This document shows positions 1-47,115 of a stretch of DNA of 64,000 nt, piece after piece (position 1 is the first letter of the stretch; every line of letters begins with the position of its first letter). The stretch covers positions 78,594,842 through 78,658,841 of the forward strand of contig NC_067285.1 in assembly GCF_020740795.1 (NCBI RefSeq), in the 5' to 3' direction. The stretch is from Apus apus. Taxonomy: Eukaryota; Chordata; Aves; Apodiformes; Apodidae. A program made the translations under genes and the position numbers. The notes under the pieces were generated by a model. It did not search any database. It had not been told where the DNA came from and was given only the letters and a program-made list of their open reading frames with translations.

Positions 1-1110
1 CCTGGCAGTGTTCAAGGTCAGGTTGGATGGATCTCTGAGCAACCTGATCTAGTGGGCGGTGTCCCTGCTAATGAAGAGGGGTTGGATTTACATGATCTTT
101 AAGCTGTAGTAAATAGTTCCTCCTCAAACTGGCAACCAATCACAAGTGGGGTCCCCCAGGGATCGATATTGGGCCCAATGCTGTTTAACATCTTCATAAG
201 TGACCTGGATGTTGGGATCAAGAGCAGCCTGATGAAGTTTGCTGACGGCACTATGATGAGTGGAGAGGCTGGCACTCCGGAAGGGAGAGCCGCCCTCCAG
301 GATGACCTGCACAGGCTGCAGGAGTGGGCTAGCAGGAACCTGATGAAGTTCAACAGGGAGAAGTGTAAGGTCTTGCACCTGGGAATACATAACCCAGGAG
401 TGCAGTTCAGACTGGGATCCACCTGGCGGGAGAGCAGCCCTGTGGAAAGTGACCTGGGGGTCTTGGTGGATAACAGGCTCAACATGAGGGAACAGTGTGC
501 TGCTGCAGTGGCAAAGAAAGCCAAGAGGATGCTGGGCTGCATCAACAAGGGCATCACCAGCGGGGATAAAGATGTCATCATCCTGCTCTACTCGGTGCTT
601 GTCAGACCATGCCTGGAGTATTGTGTTCAGTTTTGGTCCCTGGTCTACAAAAAGGATGTGGACAGGCTGGAGAGGGTCCAGAGAAGGGCCACAAAGATGA
701 TCAGAGGACTGGAGGACCTGGCATATGAGGAGAGACTGAGAAAACCGGGCTTGTTCAGCCTTGAGGAAAGAAATCTTGGGGGAGATTTCATTACCATAAT
801 CTAGTACTTAAGAGGTGGCTACCAAGAAGATGGAGACTCCCTATTTACAAGGAGTCACATGGAGAAGACAAGGGGTCATGGGCACAAGTTGCTCCTGGGG
901 AGATTCCCATTGGACACATGAGGTAAATTTTTCACCGTGAGGATCATCAGACATTGGAATTGTCTCCCAAGGGGAGTGGTAGATTCCCCACATTGGACAG
1001 TCTCATCTTGACAGGGTGCTGAGCCATCTCATATAAAGTGTAGTATTCTCTAAAAAGGTTGGACCAGATGATCTTTGAGGTCCCTTCCAACCTGGCATTC
1101 TATGATTCCA
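1..1110 (+). mobile_element. CR1 LINE, 5'-truncated, with 3' part of reverse transcriptase ORF and 3' UTR
   Basis: The reading frame at 169-804 encodes about 211 residues of the C-terminal half of a CR1-type non-LTR reverse transcriptase. It opens with the palm-like phrase GPMLFNIFISDLD, continues through KFADGT and LHRLQEWASRNLMKFN, and ends near RVQRRATKMIRGLEDL. The canonical YADD-type catalytic motif is changed: the sequence reads FADG. The frame stops at 802-804, while CR1-like nucleotide sequence continues through the usual 3' region to a tail ending around 'tctatgattccatgatgg'. The window edge cuts the 5' side, so the full length is unknown. It is almost certainly a dead copy. Confidence 0.93.
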
Positions 1111-2648
1111 TGATGGCGGGAAGTTCCTCTGTATGTTTACATTTGTTTGGAGGACTTTATAACCAAAAAAATCTGCTAATCTGGGAATGCTCCTTCTTAT
1201 AAATATAGTGAGGGTCTTGATTTAAATTGTTATTTTTTTGTCCGTGTGGTTTGGGTTGTTTGTTTTTTCCTTGGGCGTCATATTTTCTGAGTAAGTGGTT
1301 GGAAAGCAAAACTATTGCTGCTTTTCTTTATTTCCCTGCTGTGTATCTGAGAACAGAGCTTTCTTATACAAGAGTCGTAATGGAAATTATGTGTGCTAAA
1401 GTAGGACTGATAATGACACTGAACTGCTCTTTGGAAATGGTCAGTAATGTTAATTTCTAAGTCCATGTTAGTTTCTGGTACTTCCAGCTGTTCTTTTCCT
1501 ACTTTCCTTTGTCTATTTTTTGATTGAACATCTGACATCACAGTCTAGCTTTTGCAGTTATATTGCAAATTTTGGGAAACAGCTTGCTAATTCAGTGTAG
1601 AAAGGCAGAGTTGTCTGGCTTCTAGATTTCATAAGAAGCTGGGGCTATTTAGGTTCCCATAATCTCTGTTGAGGATTTGATAGTTGCTGTAGCCATGCAG
1701 CCAGAAGATTTTTATGATAATGTCTTCTAAACAGCACAGTTGATGTACTGCTGCTGCAGTACTGAATTGTGGTATGAACAATACAGCTTTCATTCCTCTT
1801 TTTACCTCTTGTTTTCATTCGTATAATGCACAATTAAATATGATGTGAAACTTGAGAGCATACCGAAAAAGGATAATTAGCTGCAGAAGGAATAAATGCA
1901 GTCAGATATGTGAAACTCTCCCGAGAGAGAGAAAAGCAGCAGATGCATTCTGATAAATTAGTGACAATTAGGCTTCTAAATTCCCCAGCCAGTGCTGGTT
2001 GCTGTAGTTGAGCCCTTCAGGTTCTGCTGGCTGTTGAACAATGGAGAACTTTGATTTCTTTTTTTACCCTTTCTAAAAAAGAATGTTAAATATAAGATGT
2101 TTGGCACTTGCAATAATCATGGCCCCTCCTACTGTGCCATTTGAAACCACTCCCTGCATAATCAAAGCATATCACTCCCCTTGATTCTGAAGATATTTTG
2201 CATTTCAGTACAAGCTTTTGTGCACTTAACCACATTTCCTACAGAGAGTACATTTGAAAAAAAGGAAAATCATTTTTTAGGTGATAAATAAGAATGATTT
2301 GAACAGCATCTGATTTTCAGAGCTCAGAAGTACTGTAAAATCAAGCTTGAAGCACTAACTTGCTTTAATTTAAAATACTGGAAAATACAATCTAGTGACT
2401 GTTTTAGTGTTGATTTCTGTTTTCCGGTTCAGAATCCAATACATACGGCATTTAAATTGCTGCTAAAAATATTTCAGAAGATAGATAGATAGATATATGA
2501 ATGTAAAGTTTATTAATGTCAAATCATAACACAGAGTTCAGCTCTGATCTTTGGGTAGCATGTGATTTTGAGTACATTTTCTCACAGGACTCATCATACT
2601 CACATGTGTTCAGGCTCTGTGTTTTTTGTTTCAACTGTGCTTTCTGTC
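1111..2648. other. AT-rich stretch upstream of WDR17; no gene seen
   Basis: No coding exon is recognisable. A short GATA microsatellite lies at about 2478-2496. No CpG island or clear TATA-box promoter was seen, so the WDR17 transcription start cannot be placed here with confidence. The upstream exon starting at 2649 may be preceded by 5' UTR within this stretch. Confidence 0.5.
2478..2496. repeat. (GATA)n microsatellite
   Basis: About four tandem GATA units followed by an imperfect one, about 150 bases upstream of the WDR17 upstream exon. Confidence 0.9.
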
Positions 2649-2714
2649 ATGGCTTGGATGACTTATATTTCCCACTGGTTTGATGAAGATGATTGGTATG
2701 AAGGACAACAATGA
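2649..2714 (+). CDS. WDR17: WDR17 upstream exon: former N-terminal extension, now a 21-codon upstream ORF ending in TGA
   Basis: The exon opens with ATG in good context (G at -3, G at +4) and reads MAWMTYISHWFDEDDWYEG, then two Gln codons, then TGA (2712-2714), followed at once by a GTAAGA splice donor. From memory, the human long isoform of WDR17 starts with a nearly identical peptide running into MSQVRQVGLL. Splicing to the acceptor at 10960 keeps the frame, so the TGA sits where the human protein has a sense codon, probably Arg (CGA). Translation from this ATG would end six bases before the ATG at 10967. The exon call rests on peptide similarity, the donor and the frame; transcription is not shown. 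Confidence 0.75.
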   Translation: MAWMTYISHWFDEDDWYEGQQ

Positions 2715-5085
2715 GTAAGAATTATTTAAATTAATATTTTCTCTTTTACTTCCTTTATAATTTCCTTCTTTAAGCTGCTGTGTATTATAATTACTAGTAC
2801 TGAAAGCAATATTCCCATAGTGATACTAAGAAGGGATTTTTAGTAGTTTTAATGAGACCTTGAATCATAGATAAGCACATCTAAAATCAGTTTTTTCAAA
2901 ATTAATGGTACTAGCTGAATAAAATATATTGGAGGTTTTGTGGCCACCTACTTGCATTTTTTTGGTTGCATAATTTAATGAGTAGTATTTTTTTAATATG
3001 CAATGAGATAGCAATCAAACCCTTAACTTTATTGTATTAAGATGAATTAATATACTGTGCACGGAGTAAACTAACATAACTATAAGCAGTAATCGAGTAA
3101 AACAAAAATATTTGGGAGATATTAGTTCAGCTAGCATAATTTCATAGTTGTGCCTTGGATATTTGTATATTTTTATTAACATTTTTGTAAGGAGGAGGAC
3201 TTGTTACTATAGCAACATTTGCAGAATATCTTGCATCTTTTTTTAACTGCATGCCTTGGGCAAGCTTGATCTCCTGCTGCTTTCATAGATTTATGGTGGG
3301 AAGTTAATATCTGTATCAAGCTCCTTTATGTAATCATATATTTTTGTAATTTCTGTTTCTCATTTTGGTAGTATATTCTCAGCCATTGAATCAGAATGTA
3401 GGGAGTGCCACTGAAACTTAAGGGCCAGCAGCTGCTTTAGTTACGTTATTATGTATTGGTAATGCCAGTTATAGGCTCTTAAGTATTCAAAGCTAGCAGA
3501 TTTTAATGTCTTCCCACTGTTCTCATTTTACATGTCACTCATTAATGTTTCAGATGTGGAGTTATCTTTTAATAACTGCTCATCAGGGATTCAGGTGTGA
3601 GATGTGTCAAGAAGTAACATCATCTGAAATCAGAATTGTCATCTTTGCAATTTGCCAGCAGAAAAGCAATCTTCTGGTGATTGTGGTATCTCTGGGTTGG
3701 AAGATGAGATCAGACATGATATATACTGAGATCAGACATGGTTGTATGTATTTCTTTGTCATACATACAGTATGTATGACTACCGTATTACTACCGTATT
3801 ACTAACCACTATTCGATAGATCATGGTTTTGTTACCACTGCCATGTATGATATCTCCAGTTGATTAGGTATGTAGTTCAACGTTCCTAGTGATGTAATAT
3901 TAGAAATATCAGCATTTCTCCATGCTCTGTTTCAAACCTTAGTATTACTCTTTAGATTATCTTGCTGAAGTTGCACAATAGATATTCTAATTAAACTGTA
4001 TAAGTAGTGTAGTCAAGACAGTCAAAAACAGTCCTTTGTAAGACTTAACCCAAGTTATGATTTTTTGAATGTTAAATTATTGTCCTTAGGTTTTCTAAGC
4101 AGGGTATATCTTGGATTAATATATATATTTTTTTAACTTCAAAAAAGTGTTCGTTGCTGTAAAATGCCATCTTGGGCTGTGATTTTTAAATCCAGGCTTT
4201 TTCCATACTGCAGCCAGAAGTCTACAACGTTTTTAGGACTTCTTCCCTTGTAAAGCCAGAGATACTGTAGTTAAATCAATTCTAGTAGAAAATTGGCTCT
4301 GGGATTTTTGTGGAGGTTTAAAATGTTTGAACACTGGTAGAACACTTGTTTATTTAAAATTATCGTTTAAATAATGATGTTATTTTCTTAAGCAGCATCT
4401 GGATAACTAAGTGCACTCATTTTAAACACTTGTTAGGTTATCATTAGTTAGGAAATGTCATCTGCAAATGCTGGTTTTAAGAGTCAAGCCGAGGCTTCTG
4501 GTGTTTTGAAAAATATTGTTGAAATTCCAATCCTTGCCCAAGGCAGTCTCTTCTTGCCTCTGGTTAATATTTTGATTCATCAGGAGCCACAGATGGTCTG
4601 TGTGCCATGCATCGTATACAAAAGCAGGAAAACTTTTCTAGTTTTTGCAGAGAAGCTTGCAAACTCTCTGTCTGTACTGCTTAATGGTAAACTAGCAACC
4701 AGGTAGGCACTTGAACAAGCAGTAAATCCTGCTTGGAAGCATGGAGGCTTTATCTTTTCTTTAGAGCAATACATGCATAAACACACATAATTATTCTATA
4801 TTATTCTACACTGTGAGTGTCATGAATAATGTAGACAGCCTTTGCTTATCTTTTCCCCTGAAGCAGTTGCTTGAAGTAGCATGTGTACATTTTCAGCTAT
4901 TTAGAGACCTACGTTAATAACTGCAGTTTGATTGTCCACATCAAGAACTGAAAGTTCTTTAGTATTTTGTGGTACTCTATGCAAAGTAGGAAGAATTTTT
5001 TGTTGAAAGGGAGTAGTTCATCTGATATTGAGGTATCTGGTTCTTAAGAAATTATAACTGAAATGTGACACTGCCATCTATTTCG

Positions 5086-10072: not shown

Positions 10073-10966
10073 AGTTTAGTTTTAACAATACCTTTGCAAA
10101 TGTGTGGATTCTTGGCTGTAGTAGAATATGTAAACGTATCACAGAAAAATGGTCTTACGTGCTTCAAATAACATTTTGACATCAGCATGAATCAAATGAG
10201 GGCTAGGTGGATAACTGGTCTTGCTCAGTAAAGAATTACTTGTGTTTGTATTTAAAGTCAGTTCTTGCCTCATTCTGAGCAGAGCTGGTAGTTTTAAGAC
10301 ATGTTTTGGACAGTGAAGGCATAATTTTATATACAGTAGTGTTACACTAAGCTTTCCTTCTTATTTTCCAGTTTTCTTCAACTTTTTTTGTTAAACAGTA
10401 GTTATTAAGAAAATTTAGAAGGCTTCTCCAAAGAGGATTGTGATTATAAGTAATGCATAGTTGTTTTATGCAAGTAGTTTGAAGACCTTTTTAGAAATGT
10501 TGCTTAACTTACTTAAAATTGTTAGCATGTGGTCTATTTTGTTGAGTCGTCTTTGTAGGGATGATGAGGAGAGCAGAGAGGGCATTATATTGTAATATAG
10601 TTGAACCAGATTGCAGAAGAAAATGAGAGTGATGAAGAATAGCTTCAGCTAGTAAAAATCAAGAACTATTCAAGTTTTTATGTGCTGCCCCCCTCCCTTT
10701 TTTTCTCCCAAATGGATTCCTGTGAATGGTATTAAAATCCCTTTCTCGCGTCGCACTGAAGATCTGTGAACATCTGCTTGGCTTTATTTCAGCTACATTC
10801 AGTTGTACCTCATAAACACAAGATCTTGCTTTTAAATCACAAAGTCTATCTGTAATTTTAAGGTACATATATATATATATGTTATTTTTGGGAAGAAAAA
10901 TTATTATTCTGTTCTTTAACATTCTGTCATCTTGTTGTCAAATAAATTTCTGTTTTAAAGGCAAAA

Positions 10967-11089
10967 ATGTCACAGGTTAAACAAGTGGGACTTCTAGCTG
11001 CGGGATGTCAGCCATGGAACAAGGATGTATGTGCTGCTAGTGGGGACAGATTCGTCTACTGTGCTACCCTTGCTATTTATATTTATCAG
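10967..11089 (+). CDS. WDR17: WDR17 coding exon 1 (residues 1-41)
   Basis: It contains the main start codon (context gcaaaaATGt) and encodes MSQVKQVGLLAAGCQPWNKD through AIYIYQ. The exon itself begins at 10961 with six untranslated bases, and the donor is cag|gtaaga. This is the first strand of the first propeller. Confidence 0.93.
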
Positions 11090-14000
11090 GTAAGATTACT
11101 TTTATTTAAGAAACTTTGGTCTGGAACAAATTACTACTTTCTTCATTTTCTGAACTGCTCATCTCAGCAGTCTTCTGAAGCTTGCAGTTACTATTCACAA
11201 ACAGAAAACAAAAAAATAGAAATCCAGTGGGATATGAAATTTTCAGACTGAGAAATACATCAGGAAATAAAGGATATACTTATTTTAACTTCATGAGTTA
11301 TACCACTAGTAGGATTAAAATAAATAAAAATTACTGTAAGGTTTGGGCATTTGATTTTTTTTTTTTTAATTGTACCAAGTGATTTAAGAAATGAGAAGGA
11401 TTTCAAGCACATTTTCGTATTCTATCCTGTTTAACCCCTTACAGGTTCCTAAATTATTGCTACCATACCTATAAGTAAACCATTTTAGGATTGTTTGAGT
11501 GCAGCTATTAATGGTATGTAATAGTTTATAAGTGAAAAGAGGATTGACTGTATTAATAGTGATTGGGCTAACTGAATATTTAACAAGTTTTCTGTCCAAG
11601 TCAGATATATGACGGTTTGATCTGTTAAGATATCAGGTACTGACAATTGTCAGATCCACTATAATTTCATTTTTAATACTTTAGTATTAACTGCTCTCCA
11701 ACCCAACAGTACTTGAAGTGAATTTACAAAATATGTATTTCTAAAATGAATTTTACGTTTTGTTTAGCTGGATCATCGATACAATGAATTCAAGCTCCGG
11801 GCAATTATGTCTGAGCATAAGAAGACAATCACAGCCATATCTTGGTGTCCCTACAATCCTGACATGTTTGCAAGTGCCAGTGCAGATAGTTTAGTGATTA
11901 TTTGGAATGTGACTGAACAGAAAGTTGTGGCCAAGCTGGACAATACAAAAGGTATTTCAGACATTGAGATCTATTTGATCCCTACAGCTTTGTCCTCCAC
12001 TGGTTCCAGAAATAATTGATATAGAGTAAATTTTAAGCAGTTGGTAGACCAGAGGTTTAAGAATTGCGTAACACAATATTCTTGTCAAAGTTGTTGTAGT
12101 TCATTTTAGAAAATAATGATAGTGTGTTTGAGTGAATTGTTCTAAACCATCTAGTAGTTGGTAAAGAAAGAGGTTGTTCTTTTTTCTAAAGTACTTGACC
12201 AATTCAAGAATTTAGTTTGGCATTGATTATTTATTGAGCAGGTGAAAAAAAAAAAAAGTTTTCCATCATGGTATTGAAGGTTAAACAATTTCATGTTAAA
12301 CTTTGTGTGTTTTAATGATAATTTAACAGAAGTGAAAGCAAATAAAATCTGGTCTTGAACAAATTCAAGTGTAATTTATCAGTGAATATGGAAAACAAAT
12401 ATTCTAATGCTTGTTTACCTGCATCTTCTCTCGGAACTTGAAACTGCCAATTAAAAGATTGTAGCAGAAGTTTAGGGGGTTTAAAGTCTGTGTTCGCCAC
12501 CTTTCGCTGCCCCACTCTTGCTCATTCCCTTCAGACAAAACCAGTACCTGTATTTCCCTTCTTACAGTCAACCTCTGTCAGGTGTTCCTGACTCCTACAT
12601 TTGCATGTAGGTGCAACCCAAGACCAGTCAGTATTTCAGGATCTTCAGGCAACTGAGTTAAAACTGATATATCCTGAAGGAAGGTATCAAGAGTTCCCTT
12701 TCATTACAGAGCTAGCTTTCCAGTTTCATCAAAAATATCTGCCTCTGTCATACTTATCTCTAAATTAAATTGTGTGTTGCAAAAAAATAGACATCTTAAA
12801 GTTTTTATTATTTTATCAGCCTACTAGCAGATGGTTTACAATAAAACAATGGTGAATGGAATTGTGAATGAATGTAAATATTGCTTAGAGGATCAGGCTT
12901 ATCCACTTCCATATGTGTGATTGTCTTTGCCACTAATGAAATCAAGTGTATCATAAAACACAGCCCATCAAAGTAGTATTAAAACAATTTGGGAAATAAT
13001 TCTACTTGCTGCTTATGGGTGTGTGTTGTTTACTTTTACACCATAAGATGTTCACACAGTTGTCTAAATATCAGTCTAATAATTTTTATGTAAAGTAATT
13101 ATTTTTACAGCTTTTCAAGACAATTGCTGATACTGGGACAAGCATTAATACACTGAATTTCATATCCACATTCTTACAAGGTTTACCTATATGTTTCAGG
13201 AATTCCTGCATCACTTAGCTGGTGCTGGAATGGAGGGGATGCTGTTGCATTTGTGTCCCACAGAGGTCCATTGTACATTTGGACTATCTCAGGACCAGAC
13301 AGTGGGGTAACTGTCCACAGAGAAGCACATAGTTTCTTGTCAGATATCAGTCTGTTTAGATGGCATCCAAAGAAAAAAGGAAAAATAGTATTTGGACATA
13401 CTGATGGAAGCCTATCTATTTTTCAGCCAGGTAAAAACTGATACAGTAAAATATTTATTTATATATGTATTATTTTTGTCTCTGTATATAATTCTGCATT
13501 TTTTTCATTTAGGTTTTTTAATGTATGCACATATGTAAAACCTGTTCTTAGTTCGTAGTGTTCCTACTCCTTCAATATCACAAAAATATGTTTTCTTAGA
13601 TAAAGAACACAGAGCATTTTCTTTGTATCTTCTCCCTTTTGTGACCAAGATAACACTGCAATTTTCAGTAAGTACAATAAATCGGGGGCTTTTTAGGGAA
13701 TGATAACAGCTATGATCTTCTGCAGAACTGTATTTCCCAGCAAGCTTGTTCTTCTGAATTGACTCACTTGAGTCTTTTGCTTAGTATCTTACTTTGCTTG
13801 CAGTTGATCTAGAGTCCTCCACTTCGTATTCTAAAGACCTCTGCATTTTTGTAGGTAGATTTGTAGAATCTCATGTTATACCTTATATTATTCATGATTC
13901 TGTTAAAGACTACATGGGAAAATATTTCTCTCCTTATGTCTGAAATCCACCAAGCTTGCCAAAGATCTACTTACAAAACAATTGTCAGAACTGAGTAGCA

Positions 14001-17000
14001 ATCTTTTTTTCTTGTAGAGCTGCCATTCAAGGCCCAGACTTGCATGGAATAAGAAATCTGAATATTTTAAGTCAAAGGATTATATTCCTGTAATTAAGGC
14101 AGTGATATTTGTGTGATCATAATGACTTTGAAAGGACACAGACCAATCTTAGTTTTATTTTAACTTGATTTCTTTATGCTATTTGAAAAAGATGAAGAAT
14201 TTATTTAGATAAAAATGTAGATGTATTAAGAATAGATCACAAAATTTTTGGTGAAGAGACAGATTAATTAAAATATGTTTCAAAATTAAGTAATATTAAA
14301 AAATCGATTGTATCACTATAATAAAATATAGTACCATTACTGTGGTTACCCTTTCAAAACTACCTTTATATGTGTCATAACATTCATTTTTAACTGAAAA
14401 TGTAGGCTTATCTGAGTTAAATTTTTAACCAACAGTGGGTTTCTAGATTGCAATTTATGGGTGTTGAATTAGATATTTAATAACCTGTTCCTGGATTCTT
14501 GACCTGTAACATGTATTTGAAACTGTGCTGCAGGCTTTTACTCTTGGAAGTTGTTAGGACAATGTGTCTGATTTAACATACTTTTATTTAGTATAAAATT
14601 ATGTTAATACACTTGATAGCTTATTCTAATCTCACTGGTTAGTAGAGCAGGCTACTAAAAATTTCAAGGAGAGACAAAATGATGTTTGCAAAACTTTTAA
14701 CTATTGAAAAGATATACTTGTTTTCATATTGAAATAATCTGTTTTCTTATGCTCTTAAAGGTTCTAAAAATCAGAAACATGTCTTAAGACCAGAGTCTCT
14801 TGAAGGAACAGATGAAGAGGATCCAGTTACAGCACTGGAGTGGGACCCCTTGTCAACTGACTATCTTCTTGTAGCTAATTTACATAATGGTATTCGACTA
14901 GTTGACTCTGAGTCTTTGTCCTGTATCACAACTTTTAGTTTTCCCAGTTCAGCAGCATCTGTTCAGTGTTTAGCTTGGGTTCCTAGTGCACCTGGAATGT
15001 TTGTAACTGGAGGTAAGCCTTTTATTTGGTTTATACAAAGGTAATAAATATAGGGCTAAGTCTTCTACACTGATACTTTGTATGATCCTTCTGTTTCTTA
15101 ACATTTCTACAAATAAAACCATACATGCATTGTGCAAAAAAACCCCAACCATATAAGTGTGGAAAAGAACAGAAACTACATTGGGCAAGTTTTGTATTTG
15201 GTTTTTTTTATTATTTGTTGCATACATAAACAAGTGACTTTGCTTTTTATACTAAATAATGTTTTCTTCATGCATGCTTGAACAGCGAATATGAGTTGCT
15301 TTGGGAGTAGGAATAAAAATTTATTGTTCTATGTCACGTCTCGCTCCAGCTTATATTTCTCTATTTTTAAAAGGATTAAAAAAAATAAAAATCAGGCTAT
15401 TTCTTGCCCCTTTTCTGCATCATAGACATTAGTGCTCAGGTTGAAGGACTAATGAGTAAGAAAACTGAGGCTTTGAAAATATTTTATAATGAGAGAGGTT
15501 CCATGGAGCTTCTCTGCTGAAGTTTAAATAACTAAGGCTACTAACTATTTTATTAATAGTGACACTACCATGGAAATTAGATCATACTTACAAAATTCTT
15601 CTTAGGATTCTAAGTTTAATTCATGTTGTATTTTTTATTAAACTGGTCCTTAGACTGCATATCTCTGTGTACGGTAAAAAGATAATAATAATTTTTTTTT
15701 AATAAATTATTTCAAGTGTGGTTTTTTTTAACCCTTAGATTCTCAGGTTGGTGTGTTACGTATTTGGAATGTTTCACGTACAACACCTGTAGGTAATTTT
15801 AAATTGAAGAAAACTGGTTTCCATGGTTTGCATGTTCTAAGTTCTCCTCCAAAGAAAAAGCGTAAGTGTAATTGTTATTGTTATTCATTGCAATGGCTAC
15901 AAGCTAAGAAAATCTTTTTTGTGTATTTTGTTATATCCAAATTGATCTCTGTAAATTTGTGTCAGATCTGTAGTTCTTTATTAAATGAAGTACCCTCTGG
16001 TGCCAGTGGACTAGAAAAATGTGCAAAGGATCAAGCACTTCATCAGGTCCTTCTTTAGTAGTCCAGGCTTCTGTTTTGATTCTTATTGGAATGCAAAGCA
16101 TTACTCTTTCTAATTGTTACTTATTAAATGAAAAAATAAAAAATCATCTTGTCTATATATATTTTTTCCTTTTTTTTATTAAGCATATTCATCACAGTAT
16201 CCTACTAAAAATCACCATACATCCTCAACAAGTGAGGCTGTTCCTCCTCCAACTTTAACCCAAAACCAAGCATTTTCACTTCCTCCTGGACACGCAGTCT
16301 GTTGCTTCATGGATGGTGGAGTGGGGCTTTATGACATGGGAGCCAGGAAGTGGGATTTCCTTAGAGATTTGGTATGTTTCCTCTCTGTTTTTCATTCAGG
16401 TTCTTTTTTACCTAAAGGGCAAAATTATTTGTTTTTAAAATAAATATTTTTTCTTGGTTGTTTTTTTTAGCTTAAGTTTTTTTAATTCTGTTTTTTAGTA
16501 ACTCGGTTCCAATGGAAAATGCTGACAAGTTCCTGGCATTGCATCACTCTGTTGTTTCAGGAAATTTTTCTATCTTTAATAATGATCTATAAGGAGTGTT
16601 ATAGTCCAAGCTATTTTGTGCCTTTTCATTTGGACTGATGAGCCAGTTTTTTTGGAACTCATAATGGATCTGACAGGTTATAATACAATGTATTTTAGAG
16701 TTTGATCTAGAGTTGGACTTCTCAAAAAAGTAAAATTAATAAAAATGGATTAAATATTTGTTTCATTTAAGGGACATGTTGAGACCATCTTTGATTGCAA
16801 ATTCAAACCTGATAACCCTGATCTTCTTGCTACAGCTTCATTTGATGGCACAATAAAAGTTTGGGACATAAATACTTTAACAGCAGTTTACACATCTCCT
16901 GGTAATGAGGGTGTTATTTATTCCCTTTCTTGGGCTCCAGGTAAGAATATTTTGCACTAGGTCTAAACATTCTTAGGATTAGCATTGACTAGTAGCAATT

Positions 17001-20000
17001 CGTGTTATAAAAGTATAAGTTTTATCTAGAAGGGTATCTTACAATGTTTAAGCATAACTTTTATCTGTGAAGCCTGTAGAATTCAGTGCTTCAGACCTTG
17101 TTGAGACATACCCTAATGAGGAATTAGATCAATATTTCATACTGAAATGACACAGAGTAGAGGGAGGAAAATCTCCAGAGCCTTTTGAGCATTACATTAT
17201 GCAAATGTTAAAAAGGCTTTCTTTGCATGGGAAGCAGCTGGTTAAAATATTTCAGATTCTATTTTGTGTGGAATAGTGGAATATAAGTGTTTCTTTCTCT
17301 TTCTTCTTTGTGTAGGTTTCTAATCACTTAAGAGCTCTGCTTTTACTTCTTAGAATAGAGAGTATCTTTTCAGCAAAGTATCTGCTTTTTCTTATAGATG
17401 TCACTGAAGTCTGCAAAATTTTCATCGTAAAACTATTCTGTAACCCACTTAGGTGAAACTGGGAGTACAATTCAGATAGTTAATGTCATTAGGTGGTGAT
17501 AGGTAGGCTTTTGTATTGTGTTTTAATACTTTGGATAGCAGATGCATTTTCTAAAAAGTCTAAATAATTCAGCTCACTGCCTTTCTCTCCTATGCTTTTA
17601 AACTAAGAAATAATAGCTGGCAGGAAAAAATACTGTAATGGGAATCTTAATATAGTTTGCATATGTGAAATTAATTGGCACTTTTTTCATTTCAGAGAGT
17701 CTCTTGCACCTTGTTTCTCTTCACAGATAATTTGTCTTGTTATATGGAAATTATGGCAATATAAAATATGGTGGTTTATTTTGTGGCATTTTATTTTGAA
17801 ATTTAAATTCAGTTTGTAGGAGTTTCTCACATTGAGAGAACAGTTTGTTTACTAGGCAGGTGCTTTTCAAATCTTGAATTCTCAGGGTTTTTTTAAAGTA
17901 ACTTTAGGCTACTTGGAAGCATGTGCTTCAATTTCAGCTCCTTACCATCCTGTCCAAAAGTTTCTGTCCATCCCAGACAGAACTTTTCCTGCTTCTTTAA
18001 CATCCCTTACTCCTAGAGTTCCTCTCCACCTTGTACTATCATTTATCTTTATTCCTAATATATAATCCAATGCCTGCCGCCATTTGTATTTGGTCTCAAA
18101 AGACCTTTGAACATATTAATAACATTTTTTCCTCTTTTTTGTCCTGCCATTCTCCTACCTGACAATCTCTTCCCATCTTATACATGTGCTTCTCCAGATT
18201 CCTGCATAGATTGCCTTTTCTGCTTTTGGAGTGTGGTAGAAAATAACAGTCAAAACATATATATAAATGTCCATGTAGCTCTTTAGTAAAAGTATAGCTA
18301 TACTGGGATAGAAGGTCACTGTGGTGAGGAGAATTTGGAGGCTTTTGTATTAGGCTTTAATTCAGTTTTCAGGGTCTCACTCTCGAGTTACACATTCAGA
18401 TATTCTGCCCTGTAGAGCATGGTTACAGATTCAAGTACATTCTTAATGGCCATGGTGCAAGATTAAGAAGACAAAGTACTGTTTTATGTTCTGTTGCATT
18501 CTTCCATTTTTTGTAGAACATAGGGAACTTTAAAAAGAAATGCTGTGGTTACTACAACTTGAAACTTTGAGATTGTATCTGTCTTTAAGTCATGCATCAT
18601 GAACATTATTTCCTTGTCACCTTAATGCCACCTTTCAGCAGGCATTGAGAATACTTTTTGCAACAATACTTCTATTCTGCCCTTTCACCAAAATAATGTA
18701 GAAAAAGCAGGTCAGGCTTTTGTTGAAACTGATCTTTGTGACTTAATATCAAATGCTGGCCTTGAACTATGAAAACCTCTTGTTTATGTGCCACTGATGT
18801 ATTGTTGTTTTTTTTTATATTACATACCTTGAATTTAAAGTAGAAATATATTAGTGAAACAATATTGTTATCTTATGTTTTTGTGAGATCTTACAAATAT
18901 CTTTCTCTGAAGGAGACCTGAACTGCATAGCTGGTGCAACATCCAGAAATGGTGGCTTCATCTGGGATGTCCGAAAAGGCAAAATGATAACCAGATTCAA
19001 TGAGGTAAGACGAGATTACATCTTTTTTTGTCTACATGTAATGTAAGTTAGGTGTCAATAAATAAAGATGGGTCTAAGTTGATAGGTTTTTCAAAAGTGC
19101 TGCAATATGAAATCCTACAGAAAGAGTTATGTAGGTGACAGTTTATCTCTGAGGCAGTAGTGTTTTTTACTTCCTCTGACTGGGTTTGTGACATGAGACT
19201 GATGAAGCATCACACATCTCCATTATCTTTCAATTGGTCCTGTAGAGATACACAGAAAAAGTATAGCTGGTTCTTTCTTAGACACGTAAATGTGTATGGT
19301 CATATAGACTTTAAACTGGATATCAAAATGTAAAATTATGTTCAGTGTTTTCAGTGGCAAGGCCTAGAAGTCTAGAGCAATAAAGCTCCATTTTGCAGCA
19401 CACTAAACAGGATGCCTTAGTTCGACTCTTGCTGTGTATTTACCTGACATCTCCTCAAGCATCTGCAAGTCCTGAAACAGTAGCATAATTATTCTGGGCG
19501 GAAAGAGCTATTTAATATAATGTTGTAGTATTCTATACTCTTTTGTATTCTTACTACATAGCTGTAATCATCAGATTATCTTCCAATTACACAGACATAA
19601 TTAACTGTGGCACCTGTGTCAGAGGACAAAGGATGCTCTTTAAGAAGACAGATATGGGAGAGGGGAATGGGCAGAAAACAGATACACATTAATGAGCTTT
19701 TGAGTTCTAACACACAGAAGATTTGCACTTGTGCTACTAAACATCTTTTCTCAAACGCTCGTCCTGATACACATCCCACTTAAATTTTCACATACCACAA
19801 TAATTCACGCCTACTATCTTCAGTATTCCAACAAGTAGCTAACCTTTATTCAAGCTTCAAGCTCATATTGTTATGGCTTGCTCATTCTTCAACTTAACCC
19901 AGTTTTGTTTCTTTAATCTTGGAAAGCATGGCTGTTTTACTGTCTCTCTTCTCAGTCCCAGTTTTTTGGACTTGAATTCTCAAATATTCCAGCTATACTG

Positions 20001-23000
20001 GGGACTCATTCTAATGTGGTTTTGTGCAGTATACTTCACTAGGAGAACAGGGCTGAAGCCCATAGGAGAATAAAATGAAAAAGATGAGTCAATAGATGAG
20101 AGAAAAAAGGGGTGAATTATTTCTTATTGATAGGTATTTTGCATTTTTTGAAGCATGGAAAGAATGGAATCTTCTGCATTGCCTGGAGTCATAAAGATTC
20201 CAAAAGAATAGCAACCTGCAGCAGTGATGGATTTTGGTGAGTGTTACTGGAAGAAAAAAAATAATTACTAAATGCACTTCTCCAATCAGTAAACTTTGAC
20301 AGTAGTATCAGTGATTAATTTAAAAAATGTTCTTACTGGCCCAAACTTGGATTATATTGATCTTCTGTACTTGTTAGGGTAAATTTTTGATGATTTTGAG
20401 AAAAAAAATGAAGTGTTTGCAAAAGGTATAGTGCCTAAGACACTGTGATAGCAAAACTGAGTATTGATTTTTATTTAGCTAATACTATTCTTCTAGGTTT
20501 CTTATCTGTAGATATGGAGGATGCTTTTCCAAAGCAATCCCACTACTTGTCTTCATTTTTTAATATATTTATTTTTTTAAGTTTGTTATTTCAAGGACTA
20601 GGAATCCCTAGGTACACCTTAGATTTTGGGCCATAAGGATCCTTTCAGGGAGGGAGGTGCTACAGTGGACATTTTTACAGCCCTTCTGAAGGAACATGAA
20701 CTCTGAAGTCCAATTAAATGTTTAATTGGGAAATACGTAGTTAGCCTTGTAGTTGTGAGGGTGCAGGAATAAAGATTTCTTATATTCCTTCTGTATACTG
20801 TTTTGCTATCTGGCTTATTTGCACAGAATCAAACTTTTGGATAGCCTACTCAGAATGCTTTTTTCCTTAAAATACTGCATTGTAATTGGTTTCAGTATTA
20901 TTCGAACCATCGATGGCAAGGTTCTTCACAAGTACAAGCATCCAGCTGCAGTGTTTGGCTGTGATTGGAGTCAAAACAACAAGTAAGTAAAAATCAACTC
21001 AAATTGATCACCAATTTAAATGTATTACCAATAAAATAGCACAAAATTATTTAGAATGTATTATTTACTGTGATGTTAGAGCACTGAAATTGTTGCTGTT
21101 CCACAACAGGATATGTCTGTAGCAGTTCTATATTGCCAGTAGTGTATTTCATTGCCCAGCATGTCGAGTAGTACAAGGACTACCTAACTTTCAGAAGAGG
21201 ATCTTTTTTTCTCTTCCATCAATAAGAAATTCTCTGGCTGAGTATATAGCATGGGGGGAAGCAGACATTCAATACCAGTAAATGGGGGTTTAAATTGGTT
21301 TCCTGTTAATGAACTGATAAGCTGAAGACATAGCAGGCAACTAAAAATCCCTGTGGTACATGTTGAGTTTGCAGATAATTCCTAATAACAATGTGGTAAC
21401 ATTTTGTCAAAAACTAATTACACAGTAAATCAATGTATTAATGGTTGTGTTGCGTGGTTGGTCAGACTGCAGTGCAAATACTGTTCCCCATTGCAACTAA
21501 TGGATCATTATCAGTTTTTTTCTGATTTTTGTATATTTAATTGAGGTCTCAATAATTACATCATAAAGAGACAAAGGACAAGCAAAAATAAGCTAATTTT
21601 GAAGTAAATTGCAAAATATGCATCATACTTATTTTCAAACTAAAAAAAGATAGCTGCTTTTGATTATTCCAGTGACCAAGGATTTTACTGTTTCTGTTTT
21701 GCAGAGATATGATAGCTACTGGCTGTGAGGATAAAAATGTTCGTGTTTACTACTTGGCAACCAGCTCAGATCAGCCACTGAAAGTTTTTACAGGGCATAC
21801 TGCAAAGGTGTTTCATGTACGGTGGTCTCCCCTGAGAGAAGGAATCCTCTGCAGTGGCTCTGATGATGGGTGAGTGTTTCTGAATCATTAGAAAACTGAA
21901 AACCTCAAGCAAGGCTAATAGAGAAAATTTAGATCTTGAGTTTTACTGGTGCTGGTGCCTTCAAAAATTCTGTGAATAATATAATAATCTAGATCTCTCC
22001 CTTGTTCAGATTCAAGCTGTAGCTTTCCTGTTAGCTTACTATAGTATATAGGCAGTGGGGTAGTTTTCTAAAATTGTCACCACTGCTGTAGCAATGCTAG
22101 TTTCTGAATGCTTTCCCAAGAGTAGAGTCAGTAACTGGTAACCCGTTACTTCCAGGAATGGTACAAGGAGGATACTACATGTTTGCAATATGTGTAAAGA
22201 TATAAGTGCAAGATCTGCTCTTATTTAATGTCTTTCAAAAGTAAAATTAAGTAGAAACTGTAGAAATTTTAATGGGGTGCTGGGTACTTCTGTTTTGTTG
22301 CTTTTTATGACTTTCTTTGAGGGAGAGCACATCAGTCTATGGTAAACCATTCTAAGCCATTTCCCTGCAGAATATACAAAAGTTTTCTGAAGAGGATCAC
22401 AAGTTTGGAGTGTTGTCTATTAGTTCATAGTGTCATGATTTATGAAAGAAGACAACTTGACACCACACCTTTTATGTGTAAATCCTCTCTATTTCACATG
22501 AGCAAGTAGTGAATCCAAAATTCTGTCATGGTGTCATTGTGAGATATTCTGATTTTATTAGTAAATATAGGGCTATGTAATAAGTTATAATTACAGAGGG
22601 ATTTCCAGAAAACAGTCACACTTTCACCTTGAGGGAAGGGGATCGTTATTGCAGGCAACACAGGAAGGAAGTCTTTTGAGTTTATTGTACTTGGTAACAC
22701 TCCTGTTCATAGTTAGCCTCTATCAGCTGTATCAGTTGTCCTGTTTAGCACCTAGGCTTATGCAGTGCTAAGGAACAGTATGCAAGGGTCACACATGAAC
22801 ACATATTGCTGTAGGGAAATATATATGTAAATATATAAAATGCCTTTCTAACATGCATATTCTACTTTGATGCAAGGCCCATCAAATGGCCCCTTTGCAG
22901 CACTGAAGAAACTGTAGTAAGTGCCTTTGCTGCCATGAGTGAGCTTTGGTAATGTATCTGATAATTGTGATCCTGGCTTAATTTTATTACATTATCTTTT

Positions 23001-26000
23001 CAAGAAACTAAGCTTTTAATTTCCTGATTCTGTAGTCTTCTCAGCTGTATCCAGTGATATCAACTACAGAAAATATAAGGAATTATTAGAAATGTACTTG
23101 GTTGAAAGGGAACTAAAAATAGTAAGAAATCTGGTTTGAATTCTTCCTCATTACTTGTGCATTAGAGGTGGGAGTTTCAAAATTTAAGATCATGTGGTGT
23201 CCACTTCTGCCATGTGACCAACACCACATTCAAATAACTAGAGTAGAATAGAATATTTCCATTGAAAGGGACCTACAATGATCATCTACTTTAACTCCCT
23301 GAGCACTTCAGGGCTGAATAAAAGTTAAAGCCTATTTTTAAGGGTGTTGTCAAAATGCCTCTTAAACACTGACAAGCTTGGGGCATCAACCACCTTGCTA
23401 GAAAACCTGTTCTAGTGTTTCACCACCCTCTTGGTAAAAAAAAATACTTCCTAATGTCAAGTCTCAACCTCCCCTGAAGCAGCTTTGAACCATTCCCATG
23501 CTTCCTATCACCAGATCCCAGGGAAAAGAGATCAGCACTTGTCCCCCTCAGGAAGCTGTACAGAGCAGTGAGGTTGCCCTCAGCCTCGTTTCTCCAAACT
23601 AGACAAGCCTGAAGTCCTCAGCCACTATTCATAGGACATGCCTTCGAGTCCTTTCACCAGCTCTATTGCTCTCTACATTTAAGGACCTTCGCATCCTTTT
23701 TGAATTGTATGGCCTAGAAGTGCACACAGCACTTAAGGTGAGGCCACAGCAGCACTGAATACAGCAGGAGAATCTCCTCTTTTGACTGGCTGGTTATACT
23801 GTGTTTGATGCACCCGGGGTGCAGGTTGCCCTCCTGGTTGCCAGGGCACACATCTGGCTCGTATTGATCCTGCTGTCAGCCAGCACCCACAGGTCCCTTT
23901 CTGCGAGGCTGCTGTCCAGCCACTCCTCTCCTGGTTCATACATTTGTCTGGTGTTACTCTGTTCTAGGTGCAGAATCCACCATCACTGTGGTGAACTGTC
24001 TTTGAGGTATTTTGTATCCAATCCTAAACATGAAGGGCATTGCCTTCAAGCTCTCCTTTTACGACTTCTATAAACATATTGCAATTAAATATTCTGATAA
24101 ACTTGAAGTTTAGAATATTGCTGAAGTTAAGAGATTTAATATGAAGAGATACTCATTTTTCAGTAGGTGATTTGATGGACATAGGTCTTTTTTATCCTGT
24201 TTCAGTACTGTTCGAATATGGGATTATACACAGGACGCTTGTATAAATGTTCTTAGTGGACATACAGCTCCAGTACGAGGACTGTTGTGGAATCCTGAAA
24301 TTCCTTACCTTCTAATATCTGGCAGTTGGGACTATACAATTCGAGTCTGGGACACAAGAGATGGAACATGTTTGGACACAGCTTATGATCATGGTGCAGA
24401 TGTATATGGTAATATTTTTAAATTTTATTTCTGAATCGAAATGCATTTTTAAATGTCTTTAAATGTATAAAATAGTTTAATCAAACTGGTCATTAAACTT
24501 AATTCTTCATCTACAATTTTAAACGTCCTCTCTTCTAGGATTGACATGTCATCCTAGTCGTCCATTTACTATGGCATCTTGCTCTCGTGACTCCACTGTG
24601 AGACTTTGGTCATTAACACCTCTTATAAGCCCTCTACAAATAAATATCTTAGCAGATAGATGTTGGGATGAGATTATAGGTAATACAGGTAAGTACATTG
24701 TATATACCATTGTTTAATTTTCTGTATGTTACTGTACTTTTTTTACTGTTGTTTTTTTTACTTTTTTAAATTACATATAAATCTTCATGTGTTTTAGATC
24801 GTGCTGTGGAATCTGGTGCTCCTCCTTTGCTCTGTGGTAAAGTTTCCAGGGATATTAAACAAGAAGTGGAAAAATTGACCAGAAATTCTCAAGGAAAAAA
24901 GCTAAGGTGGTTTTCAGAATGTTTTTCAGTAAGTATTCTACAAACTTAAGGATGTTGTCAGTGTGCATGACTTTCTCTTCTGAAGTCAATCTCCAGAACT
25001 GAAATTTCTTTCTTCTCTACCATTTTTTTTTCTCTCTTTCTTAAAGGGAGCTCAAAAAATGCACAGAAATCTGTTGTGTCTCTTAAGAGCTCTGCTTGTA
25101 AATATGTCCATGACTGAACTGTCTGCCAGTTGTGAGCATCAATTTTTAACTAAGTTGAATAGGTGGATAATTTAATTTTCCATAATAAAAGTTGGATTTG
25201 ACAAGAATTTTCTGTTGAAGAAAATGAAAAGATGTTGTCAAACTACATTGGACTTTTAAATTTTAGTCCATCAAAGGGACAGCCTCATTACAGATAAGGT
25301 TTGTAATGCCCAAGTGCCTGTTCCAGAACTCCTGTATTATCTTTTAGGAGCTGTAGAACTATGCCAAGCCCCAGGATCCATCTGTTGCCTTTGCTCCACT
25401 GCACAGTTATGTTTCTATAAGTCACTGCAGAATCTCTGTGCAATTGAGTCAAAAATGTAAACTCCTGGGTCCCTGGGAGTGCTTACATGCACAGGAGCTG
25501 AACTTGAGGTGGTAGAGCAAGGACAAAAATGACCTAGAACTACAGCTTGTGTCAAACACCATTGTAATTCAAGTCAATATACTGATCTCCAATGACCTAA
25601 TTAATCCAAGATATTTGTTTTGATTTCTAGCTAAATTGAAGTACATGATTTAGAAATGCTGAAACAATCTTAATCAATTACAAATACTGAAAATTCCTGT
25701 TTTATTTAAAATATCTTTTTATAGAATTCCTTGTTTTACAAAAGTTATACAATTTGATGTCTTGTGTTGATTTGACAGTAAAACTGTTATAAGACTGTTA
25801 GAATTTTCTAGGAGCAAAAACTGGTTTGGGGTTGGGTTTTTTGGATTTGTTTTTTTTTCTTTCCTACTAGGATCATCTGCTTTTCACCAGCTCAGAAATT
25901 ATTGGACTTCTAAACTGTAATCCTGTTAGTCTTAGAAAAGCTCCTTGAGGTCAAAAGTTTATTTTTTTTTTAATTATTTTTTTTAATTACTCTCTTTTAG

Positions 26001-29000
26001 ATCTCACTGAATGTTAAACTATTGTCCTGGATCTACAGAAAGACCAGTTCAAATGTTAAACGAATAATAATGCTTAAAAATTATTTTAAAAATTAATTTA
26101 TGGCCTACAACAATTTGTGCATAAACAGTTACACTATATTTGTCTTTTTTAAGATTTAATATTAAGATAGTAAACCAGATCGAGGCAGTCAAGCCTTGAC
26201 TTTGTTTTTTACCTGGCCCACACCTTTTGTTTGCAGAAAATGTTAATCAAGTACTGGTGCAGGTCTTGAATCCAAGCAGCTGAATGTTGTTTTATGCCAG
26301 CAGTAGCCACCAGACAGCTTGGAAACAAAAGAGAAAACTATAGTGGTAAGCTGTCAGTTATGTCCACACATAACAAAAAAATGATGTTTATACATCTTTC
26401 TGAATCTTTGCAACCTTGAAGAAGACTGAAGGAATTGTAGTATTTTGAACTAGTTCATGTCTTGATAGTAAAGCTAATACTGAAATGATCTGAAATTCTA
26501 TTTCTTGGAACTGACAAATGCTTTCCAATGTCTTTATAAGTTCAAGTTTCTTTGGTGAACATTACTGTAATACAACTCTTTCTTTTCCCTAACAATTTTA
26601 GCCTCCAGGAGGCAGCAAAAATTTATGGGACTTAGTTGCTGTAATAAAAGGACAGGATGACAGTTTGCTTCCACAAAACTACTGCAAAGGAATTATGCAT
26701 ATGAAACACCTCGTTAGATTTAGAATGGTAAGTGATTCATAAATGGTATGTGAAAATGGCTGTTAATCTGTATAGTATTTAACTCTTTAATGTTTTACAA
26801 TGTTTTTAACTAGAAAAGCAGTTTTCAAAGTAATTAAAAGAAATTGCAAAGCCAGCATCACTGCTACTTGAGCTATGAAGCAAGATTGTATTCCTTATTA
26901 TATATAACATAATTTTATATTCAGTAAAGTCAAATTATTTGGTTGTTTAACCATTAAGTTTGTAGTTATGCTCAGATACAGGGACAGAGAAAATCATGCC
27001 TGAAAATGGAGGAGAGTCAGCAGAAATATGCTCTGTAGCTGTATGGAAGGAGTGGAAGAACAAGAAGCTGTCATTAATACAAAAAGGCAGCTGAAGAGTG
27101 ACTCAGATGTGAATGTGAAATTCAAGTACAAAGCCACAAATTCATTAGTAGCTGCATATATGAATATGCAACCAGACATACAATTTGTGCAGAATATGAA
27201 GATACCTTTTAGGGATACTAAAGAATCCCATACTTTAATGACTGGATTGGAAGTAGAGGAAAGAGACCTATTTGTATGGATCAGAAAATGCGTAACTTGC
27301 CACCTGCCACTCCCAGGGCCAAATACCTGCCAGCTATCACCTGGATTGCTATTGCAGGCTGTCTCTTTTGCAAAATCAGGCTCTTAAAGAGTGTCCTACA
27401 TACCTTATGACTCTTAAATGATGGAAATTTTCTATTGGTGATGTTAACTGCAATAATGGCAGCTACTGTGCTAATACTATGAAGCTTGGGGGGTGTGTGC
27501 ATGTTTCTGCATGTGCAAAAGACAGTTTTCTCAGCCAGTTAGCCTGAAAAGAAGTAATTCTTTGCTCATACAGTGCAAGCTGTCTCTTTATCCCTGCAAC
27601 ATGATTTCATGCATTTATAACTCAGGTGACCTAGAGTAACTACAGTAATTGCTGATCATTCTGTGGATCTGGATTAAGTGTTCCCATGAATTAAGAGCGT
27701 TTTGTCCCCTTTTTGCTGACTCAGAATCTTGCTTGTTTGCTTTAAGAAAAAGTAGAGGGTAGGGTGATGCTGGCTGGTTGTGTATGGCTGCTAATAACAT
27801 CTTTTCCCTGGGAAACTGAATAATGGAATTGCAGCACCAAAACATTCCAGGATGAAGTAGGGACCTAGAACCGGTTTCTAGCAGATAGAGAGGATACATT
27901 GGAGACTTCAGCATAAAAATTACAGACGTGCAACATAAAAAAGTAACATAGTTTATTTTAAAATATCAGATCCTTTGCCTTTCTCAGCAGCTGCCATTGG
28001 TCTACATTGAGTTTACTTTGGTGAAGAATGTTAAAAATTTATTCTCCATCCTCCATATATGGTATTATAAAGCCGTGAATAGCCAAACACCATCTCCTGT
28101 GCATTGATGTTAGAGAGTTAAACTGAGAACTCTTGAAATGTGAAGCTCCTTTGTTGTTTTTTTTTAGTTCAGTGTGATTCTGTTGCAGTTTGTTTCTCAG
28201 ACTGATGAGGAAATTTAGGTCTTATTTCTTCAACTAATATAAAAATGCAGTGGTCCTGTGGTTAATGGGGTATGATAGATCAGGACACAAGTTGAGCCTA
28301 CTGTCTGTCTTCTTTCTTTATTAGGACATCCTTATAATGGTTAAGAGTACAATTTCTGACTGTATCATTTATTATGTTCACAAATATTTTTTTAAATTTC
28401 AAAAATGTCAATATTTTTTTATGGACTTCTGGGTTAATTACTATTATATATGAGAAAATGGTTGGGAATAAAAAAAAATATATAAAAGATTAAAGGAATA
28501 TAATGGAGGAAAAATATCTGTGCAACAAAACACTAACAGAGTTACTTTGACAATATAAATAGTTCTCTGTAATCTCATTGTAAACTCTTCCAATCACCCT
28601 TTTCTCAAAAGGCTTTTTTTCTTAAATGATAGCCTTTGTAGTCCACTGTAATGTTTGACTGTGCTTCATTCTTAATAAAGCCTGTTTTCATCACAGAAAA
28701 TTGTACTTTCTTTTAATTACTATTATTTTTAACTTTTTTTTTTTTCCCCCTCAGTCCAAGGCACAAGAACTGACAACAGTAAAAATGTCCAAGTTTGGAG
28801 GTGGTATTGGTGCACCAAGCAAAGAGGAGAGGCTTAAAGAAGCTGCAGAAATACATTTAAGATTAGGACAAATTCAGCGATATTGTGAACTAATGGTAGA
28901 ACTTGGAGAGGTAAAATATCAGAACGTTATTGAAGAACAATAAAATATGAAGGTTTCTGAAAACCAACTACCCTGCCAAAGATAGAGTAGCAACAAAATG

Positions 29001-46955: not shown

Positions 46956-47115
46956 TGGAGGGAGGCCATGGACTGGCAGCCTTCAGGCCGCCCTCACGCA
47001 GGGGCAGGCAGCGGCTGCGGGGCGGGCCCGGGCGCTGCAGCCCCCGGGGTTACCGGCCCTGGCAGTAAACACCGGGACATCGCGTGATCCGTATGTTTCC
47101 TGAAACGCCAGTCAG
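46956..47115. promoter_or_regulatory. Small CpG-rich block, possible promoter or relic promoter
   Basis: About 160 bases are strikingly GC-rich and CpG-rich ('gcaggcagcggctgcggggc', 'gggcccgggcgctgcag') in an otherwise AT-rich window; this is the only such block. It lies about 2.9 kb from the ASB5 stop, where the start of a - strand gene between WDR17 and ASB5 would be expected. On the - strand an ATG at about 46974 opens 15 codons containing KGRTKC and then stops. That is too little to assign. Confidence 0.45.

What the first reader, a model, noticed from the sequence alone, without database searches (positions are those of the whole stretch)
2649..2714. N-terminal extension of WDR17 converted to an upstream ORF by an in-frame TGA
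The exon encodes a peptide almost identical to the remembered start of the human long isoform (MAWMTYIS, then W, F, DDWYEG), with a good Kozak context and an intact donor. Its last codon is TGA where human probably has CGA, a CpG-type C-to-T change. In the spliced message TGA is followed by six bases and then the main ATG, in the same frame. This predicts a 21-codon uORF that would force reinitiation or leaky scanning, or possibly a regulated readthrough form. Retention of the peptide after loss of continuity suggests either a very recent change or selection on the uORF.
Basis: partly seen in the sequence, partly recalled or inferred. Interest (0 to 1): 0.72.

Follow-up and report, generated by a model that had tools for sequence, protein, structure and literature searches.

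The report
WDR17 N-terminal extension closed by stop
In this bird genome the exon that in mammals adds a short alternative start to the WDR17 protein ends in a stop codon, so it can only act as a small upstream reading frame that should dampen the message, an ordinary kind of change whose effect still needs RNA data.

Summary
Window 2649-2714 reads ATG, 20 more sense codons and TGA, in strong start context, with a usable donor at 2715. Joined to the acceptor at 10961 it gives TGA + 6 nt + ATG of an intact 1,283-codon WDR17 frame. The stretch was found once in the assembly. The peptide matches my recalled human N-terminus at 17 of 21 residues.

Best reading: an alternative 5' exon whose protein extension is closed. 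WDR17 then starts only at the downstream Met (human Met25, recalled), probably mostly from transcripts that skip this exon; a CpG island with a strong donor, a likely first exon, lies about 13 kb upstream. Transcripts that keep the exon carry 6-7 upstream AUGs, four of them out of frame and overlapping the main start; one overlaps the TGA itself (ATGA). They should be poorly translated. Readthrough looks unlikely; efficient reinitiation too, though less surely.

Direction of change is untested, since no other vertebrate sequence was reachable. The kind of event is known (Par17 in gibbon). Low-to-moderate interest.

The parts
2614..2714 (+). Alternative 5' exon of WDR17 (most likely extent; 2588-2714 if the upstream acceptor is used)
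   Evidence: Acceptor scores 8.06 (2614) and 5.46 (2588), donor 7.02, matrices from the gene's own junctions; transcription not tested
2649..2714 (+). uORF: 21 sense codons and TGA, former or alternative N-terminal extension of WDR17
   Evidence: Read directly; 17 of 21 residues equal to recalled human N-terminus
2712..2714 (+). In-frame TGA, last codon of the exon
2715..2720 (+). Splice donor GTAAGA
   Evidence: Score above 11 of the other 27 donors of the model
2711..2713 (+). ATG overlapping the TGA (ATGA), A at -3; in the spliced message starts a 7-codon out-of-frame ORF that runs past the main ATG
2683..2700 (+). Three further out-of-frame ATGs (2683, 2689, 2698) that share one stop beyond the main ATG
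10961..11089 (+). First exon of the main WDR17 frame; acceptor at 10961
10967..10969 (+). Main ATG (MSQVKQV), counterpart of human Met25 (recalled); A at -3, T at +4
10967..42218 (+). Intact WDR17 coding region, 28 exons, 1,283 codons
   Evidence: chicken primer product 219 bp predicted and reported

Best explanation
The exon ending at 2714 is the bird counterpart of the alternative WDR17 exon that in mammals encodes a 24-residue N-terminal extension (human form recalled). In this genome its frame is closed by a TGA at the last codon, so the long isoform cannot be made. WDR17 is translated from the downstream Met. Most of it should come from transcripts that join an upstream, probably non-coding first exon (CpG island about 13 kb upstream) directly to 10961. 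Transcripts that include the exon carry a strong-context uORF ending 6 nt before the main ATG plus four overlapping out-of-frame AUGs, so they should yield little protein and may be NMD-sensitive. The exon is thus a weak negative 5' leader element or a decaying alternative exon. Shown: sequence, frames, splice-site quality, intact main ORF. Inferred: transcript structure, translation outcome, direction of the change.
For: TGA in frame at the last codon, 6 nt before the main ATG. Main ORF of 1,283 codons intact; 1,094 of 1,282 aligned residues equal to recalled human. Exon model checked by chicken RT-PCR primers: 219 bp predicted, 219 bp reported in PMC7840013. CpG island with donor CAG|GTGAGG at L004:9709; no ATG in the last 106 nt before that donor. 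Alternative 5' ends are known in mammals: mouse Wdr17 has a common and a rod TSS whose transcripts differ in first exons (PMC5480877, passages); human retina yields shorter WDR17 transcripts lacking the annotated start codon, which the authors say may use an internal one (PMC1802077, sections 8 and 26 read). Seven AUGs precede the main AUG with the 2588 start, six with the 2614 start.
Against: No transcript data: it is not shown that 2714 is joined to 10961, or that the island exon is joined to either exon. The human N-terminus is recalled, not retrieved. The peptide shows no visible decay (17 of 21 versus 1,094 of 1,282 for the rest; Fisher p = 0.54), which also fits a functional peptide. If the island transcript starts more than 107 nt before its donor it would carry its own overlapping out-of-frame AUG (47-codon ORF across the main start), so the skipped form is not surely free of uORFs. 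A review (PMC9661723, passages) counts short uORFs and short intercistronic distances among key factors for reinitiation, reads shorter as helpful, and says early stops often escape NMD, against my expectation of strong repression; PMC6547434 (passages) says longer spacing helps.
Confidence: 0.6

Rival explanations
1. A translated uORF under selection: the exon is regularly included and the uORF tunes WDR17 translation, with the peptide or its length kept by selection.
For: Strong start context, intact donor, peptide as conserved as the rest of the protein; chicken PPARG variant 1 shows a repressive uORF in one of several alternative leaders in a bird (PMC7058706, abstract).
Against: Retention over 21 codons is equally expected without selection for tens of millions of years under the lower assumed rates; no sign of transcription or translation available.
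Confidence: 0.12
2. The exon is a fossil: no longer spliced into WDR17 mRNA at all, so the TGA has no effect.
For: Donor has a non-consensus last exon base (A at -1) and T at -3, lower than with any other base at -3; no transcript data.
Against: Donor above 11 of 27 and acceptor 2614 above 14 of 28 of the gene's own sites; peptide not decayed.
Confidence: 0.12
3. The stop is ancestral: the common ancestor had a uORF here and the mammalian extension arose by loss of the stop.
For: Direction of change is not polarised by any sequence available here; an extension gained upstream of an older start is known (Par17 in hominids, PMC2031878, passages).
Against: Seventeen of 21 residues shared with recalled human suggests the peptide was coding protein before the split; uORF peptides are seldom conserved (recalled).
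Confidence: 0.08
4. The TGA is a rare allele or assembly error; the species normally has a sense codon.
For: One assembly only; a CpG site, if it was one, mutates often.
Against: Chromosome-scale assembly (contig C5 of 115.5 Mb; 110 contigs); main gene intact; single match.
Confidence: 0.05
5. The long isoform is still made through stop-codon readthrough, selenocysteine insertion or RNA editing of the TGA.
For: Retention of the peptide in frame with the main start.
Against: UGA-GCA context; exon and intron start fold no better than shuffles, z = 0.35; no SECIS match.
Confidence: 0.03

Closest known systems
Par17/Par14 N-terminal extension, gibbon state (PMC2031878, passages read)
   Same: An upstream ATG in frame with the main ATG, with an interposed stop (TAA in gibbon) that prevents the extended protein
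   Different: Par17 is a young gain in hominids and its upstream and main ATG lie in parvulin exon 1; here the extension appears shared by mammals and birds (human form recalled) and the stop sits at an exon end
WDR17 isoform without residues 1-24 (human isoform 2, recalled) and the shorter human retinal transcripts (PMC1802077, sections 8 and 26)
   Same: Protein may start at a downstream AUG when the annotated start is absent
   Different: In mammals the long form stays possible; in this genome it is not. Which AUG the retinal transcripts use was not stated in what I read
Chicken PPARG transcript variant 1 uORF (PMC7058706, abstract read)
   Same: Alternative leaders, from promoter and splicing choice, differ in carrying a repressive uORF
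   Different: Tested experimentally there; the abstract does not describe that uORF as a former coding extension
Early nonsense variants rescued from a downstream Met (ATRX R37X, beta-globin; review PMC9661723, passages)
   Same: Early stop followed by an in-frame AUG that gives an N-terminally shortened protein
   Different: Disease alleles or reporters, with a more distant Met in beta-globin (Met55); here the downstream Met would already be a normal alternative start

Membership tests
WDR17 orthologue | Gene-wide protein identity and ordered exon structure | tested here: met
   Recalled human protein: 1,094 of 1,282 aligned residues; chicken primers give the published 219-bp product in the exon model, with 7 of 44 primer bases different; WD40 repeat in the exon at 24206 (Pfam PF00400, E 1.8e-10)
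uORF-bearing mRNA | AUG upstream of the main start with an in-frame stop before it | tested here: met
   2649-2714 by sequence and modelled splice
uORF-bearing mRNA | The exon is present in mature WDR17 mRNA | not testable with these tools
   Only splice-site quality was examined
uORF-bearing mRNA | uORF is translated and changes main-ORF output | not testable with these tools
   Needs ribosome profiling or reporters
Reinitiation control of the GCN4/ATF4 type | Spacing after a permissive uORF long enough for regulated reacquisition of factors | tested here: not met
   6 nt between TGA and main ATG; longer spacing helps according to PMC6547434 passages, though PMC9661723 passages read shorter distance as helpful
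Programmed stop-codon readthrough | Leaky context such as UGA-CUA (recalled) | tested here: not met
   UGA-GCA-AAA in the modelled splice
Selenoprotein recoding | SECIS element in the 3' UTR | tested here: inconclusive
   0 Rfam matches at gathering score in the window; no SECIS among 4 weak matches in 42000-48000; 3' UTR extent not known
Rod-specific first exon of Wdr17 | CRX and NRL sites near the TSS (PMC5480877, passages) | tested here: inconclusive
   No [CT]TAATC[CT] and no TGCTGA in 2001-2700; TAATC twice, reached by 68 of 177 tiles (motifs recalled)

The most novel reading that the evidence does not exclude
A former protein N-terminus has been kept under selection as a translated regulatory uORF across many birds. 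One base change both closed the extension and created an overlapping AUG, turning an isoform choice into a translational switch for a photoreceptor gene.
Probability: 0.08. Interest if true: 0.6.

Novelty: new member of a known kind. Interest (0 to 1): 0.27.

Why it matters
[quoted passage not shown] A lineage that cannot make the long isoform would say that the 24-residue extension is dispensable there. The locus is also a clean natural case of a coding extension turned into a leader ORF by one codon. It becomes of wider interest only if the stop proves old and shared among birds.

Tried and rejected
Looking for relatives: a degenerate DNA pattern for the first eight codons found 0 stretches in viral contigs and 0 in genome contigs, both collections of microbes or viruses where little was to be hoped for. 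The window's genome has no relatives held. So no bird or vertebrate alignment, no dN/dS and no dating by phylogeny was possible. A literature search for the string MAWMTYIS found 0 papers.

Alternative splicing that would save the extension: six in-frame junctions were possible with donors in 2652-2716 and acceptors in 10700-11085. The highest summed score uses a GC donor (-3.5) that leaves one codon of the extension; the next pairs the GTATGA donor at 2696 (6.2) with a very poor acceptor at 11041 (-2.0) that deletes the start of the main protein. Rejected.

RNA structure or editing: 2588-2860 folds no better than shuffles (z = 0.35; 122 of 200 shuffles as good). Selenocysteine: no support. 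PDB search with the main-start exon gave two hits, E 0.16 and 1.7, of no meaning. Pfam with the 21-residue peptide gave 0 families.

Dating by decay: a Poisson model with assumed rates of 1 to 2.5e-9 per site per year (recalled range) gives P(4 or fewer differences) of 0.12 at 100, 0.07 at 80, 0.07 at 60 and 0.12 at 40 million years for rates 1, 1.5, 2 and 2.5e-9; at 2e-9 and 100 million years it is 0.007. Pedigree rates in two large birds are about six times lower than the lowest of these (PMC9995274, passages), which weakens dating further. No date is claimed.

Errors on the way: the first exon model misplaced the junctions around the exons at 37921 and 38124 and showed false stops; a first try at mending read one exon in the wrong frame; the model is the corrected one. 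The splice matrices were recalled consensus values and gave the exon's donor a low score (-0.8, lower than most of the gene's own); the scores quoted elsewhere come from matrices built from the gene itself. The 2006-assembly human TSS coordinates could not be tied to a particular exon, so only the authors' own statement is used.

Full report
What is there. Window 2649-2714 reads ATG, 20 further sense codons and TGA: MAWMTYISHWFDEDDWYEGQQ-stop. The ATG has G at -3 and G at +4. The intron starts at 2715 (TGA|GTAAGA). The next exon begins at 10961 with GCAAAA and then the ATG of MSQVKQVGLLAAGCQPWNKD. Spliced together, the TGA, six bases and the main ATG lie in one frame. The 151-bp stretch and the peptide were each found once in the 1.1-Gb assembly.

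The gene. After correction of misplaced junctions, the coding model from the downstream Met has 28 exons and 1,283 codons with no internal stop; 1,094 of 1,282 aligned residues equal the recalled human protein. An independent check of the model: primers published for chicken WDR17 (PMC7840013, passages) sit in two of the modelled exons with 7 of 44 bases different, and the predicted spliced product across two introns is 219 bp, the reported size. So the host is not chicken, but most likely a bird.

The exon as an exon. Scored with matrices built from the gene's other junctions, the donor at 2715 gets 7.02. Eleven of the other 27 donors score lower, and 88 of 3,560 GT sites in the window score as high. 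With a recalled general consensus it scored poorly, -0.8, because the last exon base is A. Two other donors of the model also have TGA before the GT (31352 and 38253). On the 5' side, acceptors at 2614 (8.06) and 2588 (5.46) are both within the range of the gene's own. The exon therefore looks like an internal exon rather than a first exon; I found no excess of CRX- or NRL-type motifs near it. About 10 kb upstream of the window lies a CpG island (72 CpG in one 500-bp tile) with the donor CAG|GTGAGG at L004:9709, a good candidate for the common first exon. From there either this exon or the one at 10961 could be chosen. The last 106 nt before that donor hold no ATG. One ATG lies 107 nt before it, in a CCAAT-like string that may be promoter; if transcribed it would open a 47-codon out-of-frame ORF across the main start.

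What the TGA does. It is the last codon of the exon, and no cryptic junction gives a credible path from MAWM into the main frame. With the 2614 start, six AUGs precede the main AUG; with the 2588 start, seven. Those at 2604 (only with 2588), 2649 and 2658 end at the TGA. Those at 2683, 2689, 2698 and 2711 are out of frame and run past the main AUG before they stop. The AUG at 2711 overlaps the stop as ATGA and has A at -3. If the earlier codon was CGA or AGA, that AUG did not exist before, so one change closed the extension, made a competing AUG and slightly lowered the donor score (7.02 with T, 8.34 with C, 7.58 with A at -3). The arginine is recalled from human, not retrieved.

Mechanism. 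I expect little WDR17 from transcripts that include the exon: the uORF start is strong, the stop is 6 nt from the next AUG, and leaked ribosomes meet overlapping AUGs. PMC6547434 (passages) ties reinitiation to longer spacing. Against this, PMC9661723 (passages) counts short uORFs and short intercistronic distance among the key factors for reinitiation and reads shorter as helpful, so some reinitiation cannot be excluded. The simplest productive route is skipping. Mammals give some support, since first-exon choice is known there: mouse Wdr17 has a common and a rod TSS with different first exons (PMC5480877, passages), and human retina gives shorter transcripts lacking the annotated start, which the authors suggest may use an internal AUG (PMC1802077, sections 8 and 26). 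All steps after the sequence itself are inference.

Age and selection. The peptide differs from recalled human at 4 of 21 places, no different from the rest of the protein (Fisher p = 0.54). A Poisson estimate shows that 21 codons cannot separate a stop of a few million years from one of several tens of millions, although an age of 100 million years is disfavoured at the higher assumed rates (P = 0.007 at 2e-9). The position of the stop is unremarkable if the earlier codon was CGA (51% of weighted one-step stops under assumed rates) and less expected if it was AGA (2.5%). The direction of change is open.

Comparison. The closest described case that I read is Par17, where an upstream ATG in frame with the Par14 ATG gives an N-terminal extension in hominids while gibbon has an interposed TAA (PMC2031878, passages). 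In chicken, PPARG variant 1 shows that a uORF in one of several alternative leaders can repress translation (PMC7058706, abstract). In the paper library I searched WDR17 (95 papers hold the name, 40 listed), WDR17 with isoform, retina and 4q34 (4 papers) and the string MAWMTYIS (0 papers). Of the 95, eight were opened, for passages or sections only. I saw no mention of a bird WDR17 stop or uORF in those, which is no proof of absence.

Verdict. A real and neat sequence feature of a known kind: an alternative N-terminal extension closed by a stop, leaving a uORF. Interest 0.27; it would rise if the stop were shown to be old and the uORF translated.

Noticed in passing
L004:9401-9830 (about 10.1-10.6 kb upstream of window position 1): Strong CpG island (72 CpG in one 500-bp tile) with donor CAG|GTGAGG at 9709 on the + strand; likely common first exon of WDR17
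   Followed up: partly
window 51427-51678 and 52773-52988, minus strand: Open frames with ankyrin repeats (Pfam PF00023), probably exons of ASB5 from recalled human gene order; a sub-threshold Ank match at 55855-56079
   Followed up: partly
window 33717-37063: The model joins KCMAVTTW directly to DLAADLL; the recalled human protein has about 15 more residues here, so this bird lacks that segment or I did not find it
   Followed up: no
window 1-1115: CR1-like retroposon (GC 0.51 in 1-1000) ending in the tail GGTTGGACCAGATGATCTTTGAGGTCCCTTCCAACC (label recalled)
   Followed up: no
G000 contig C5, 115.5 Mb: The WDR17 contig is larger than the roughly 70-90 Mb that I recall for avian chromosome 4, hinting at a fusion (contig lengths)
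   Followed up: no
window 2711-2714: ATGA: the uORF stop overlaps an out-of-frame AUG that begins a 7-codon ORF across the main start
   Followed up: partly
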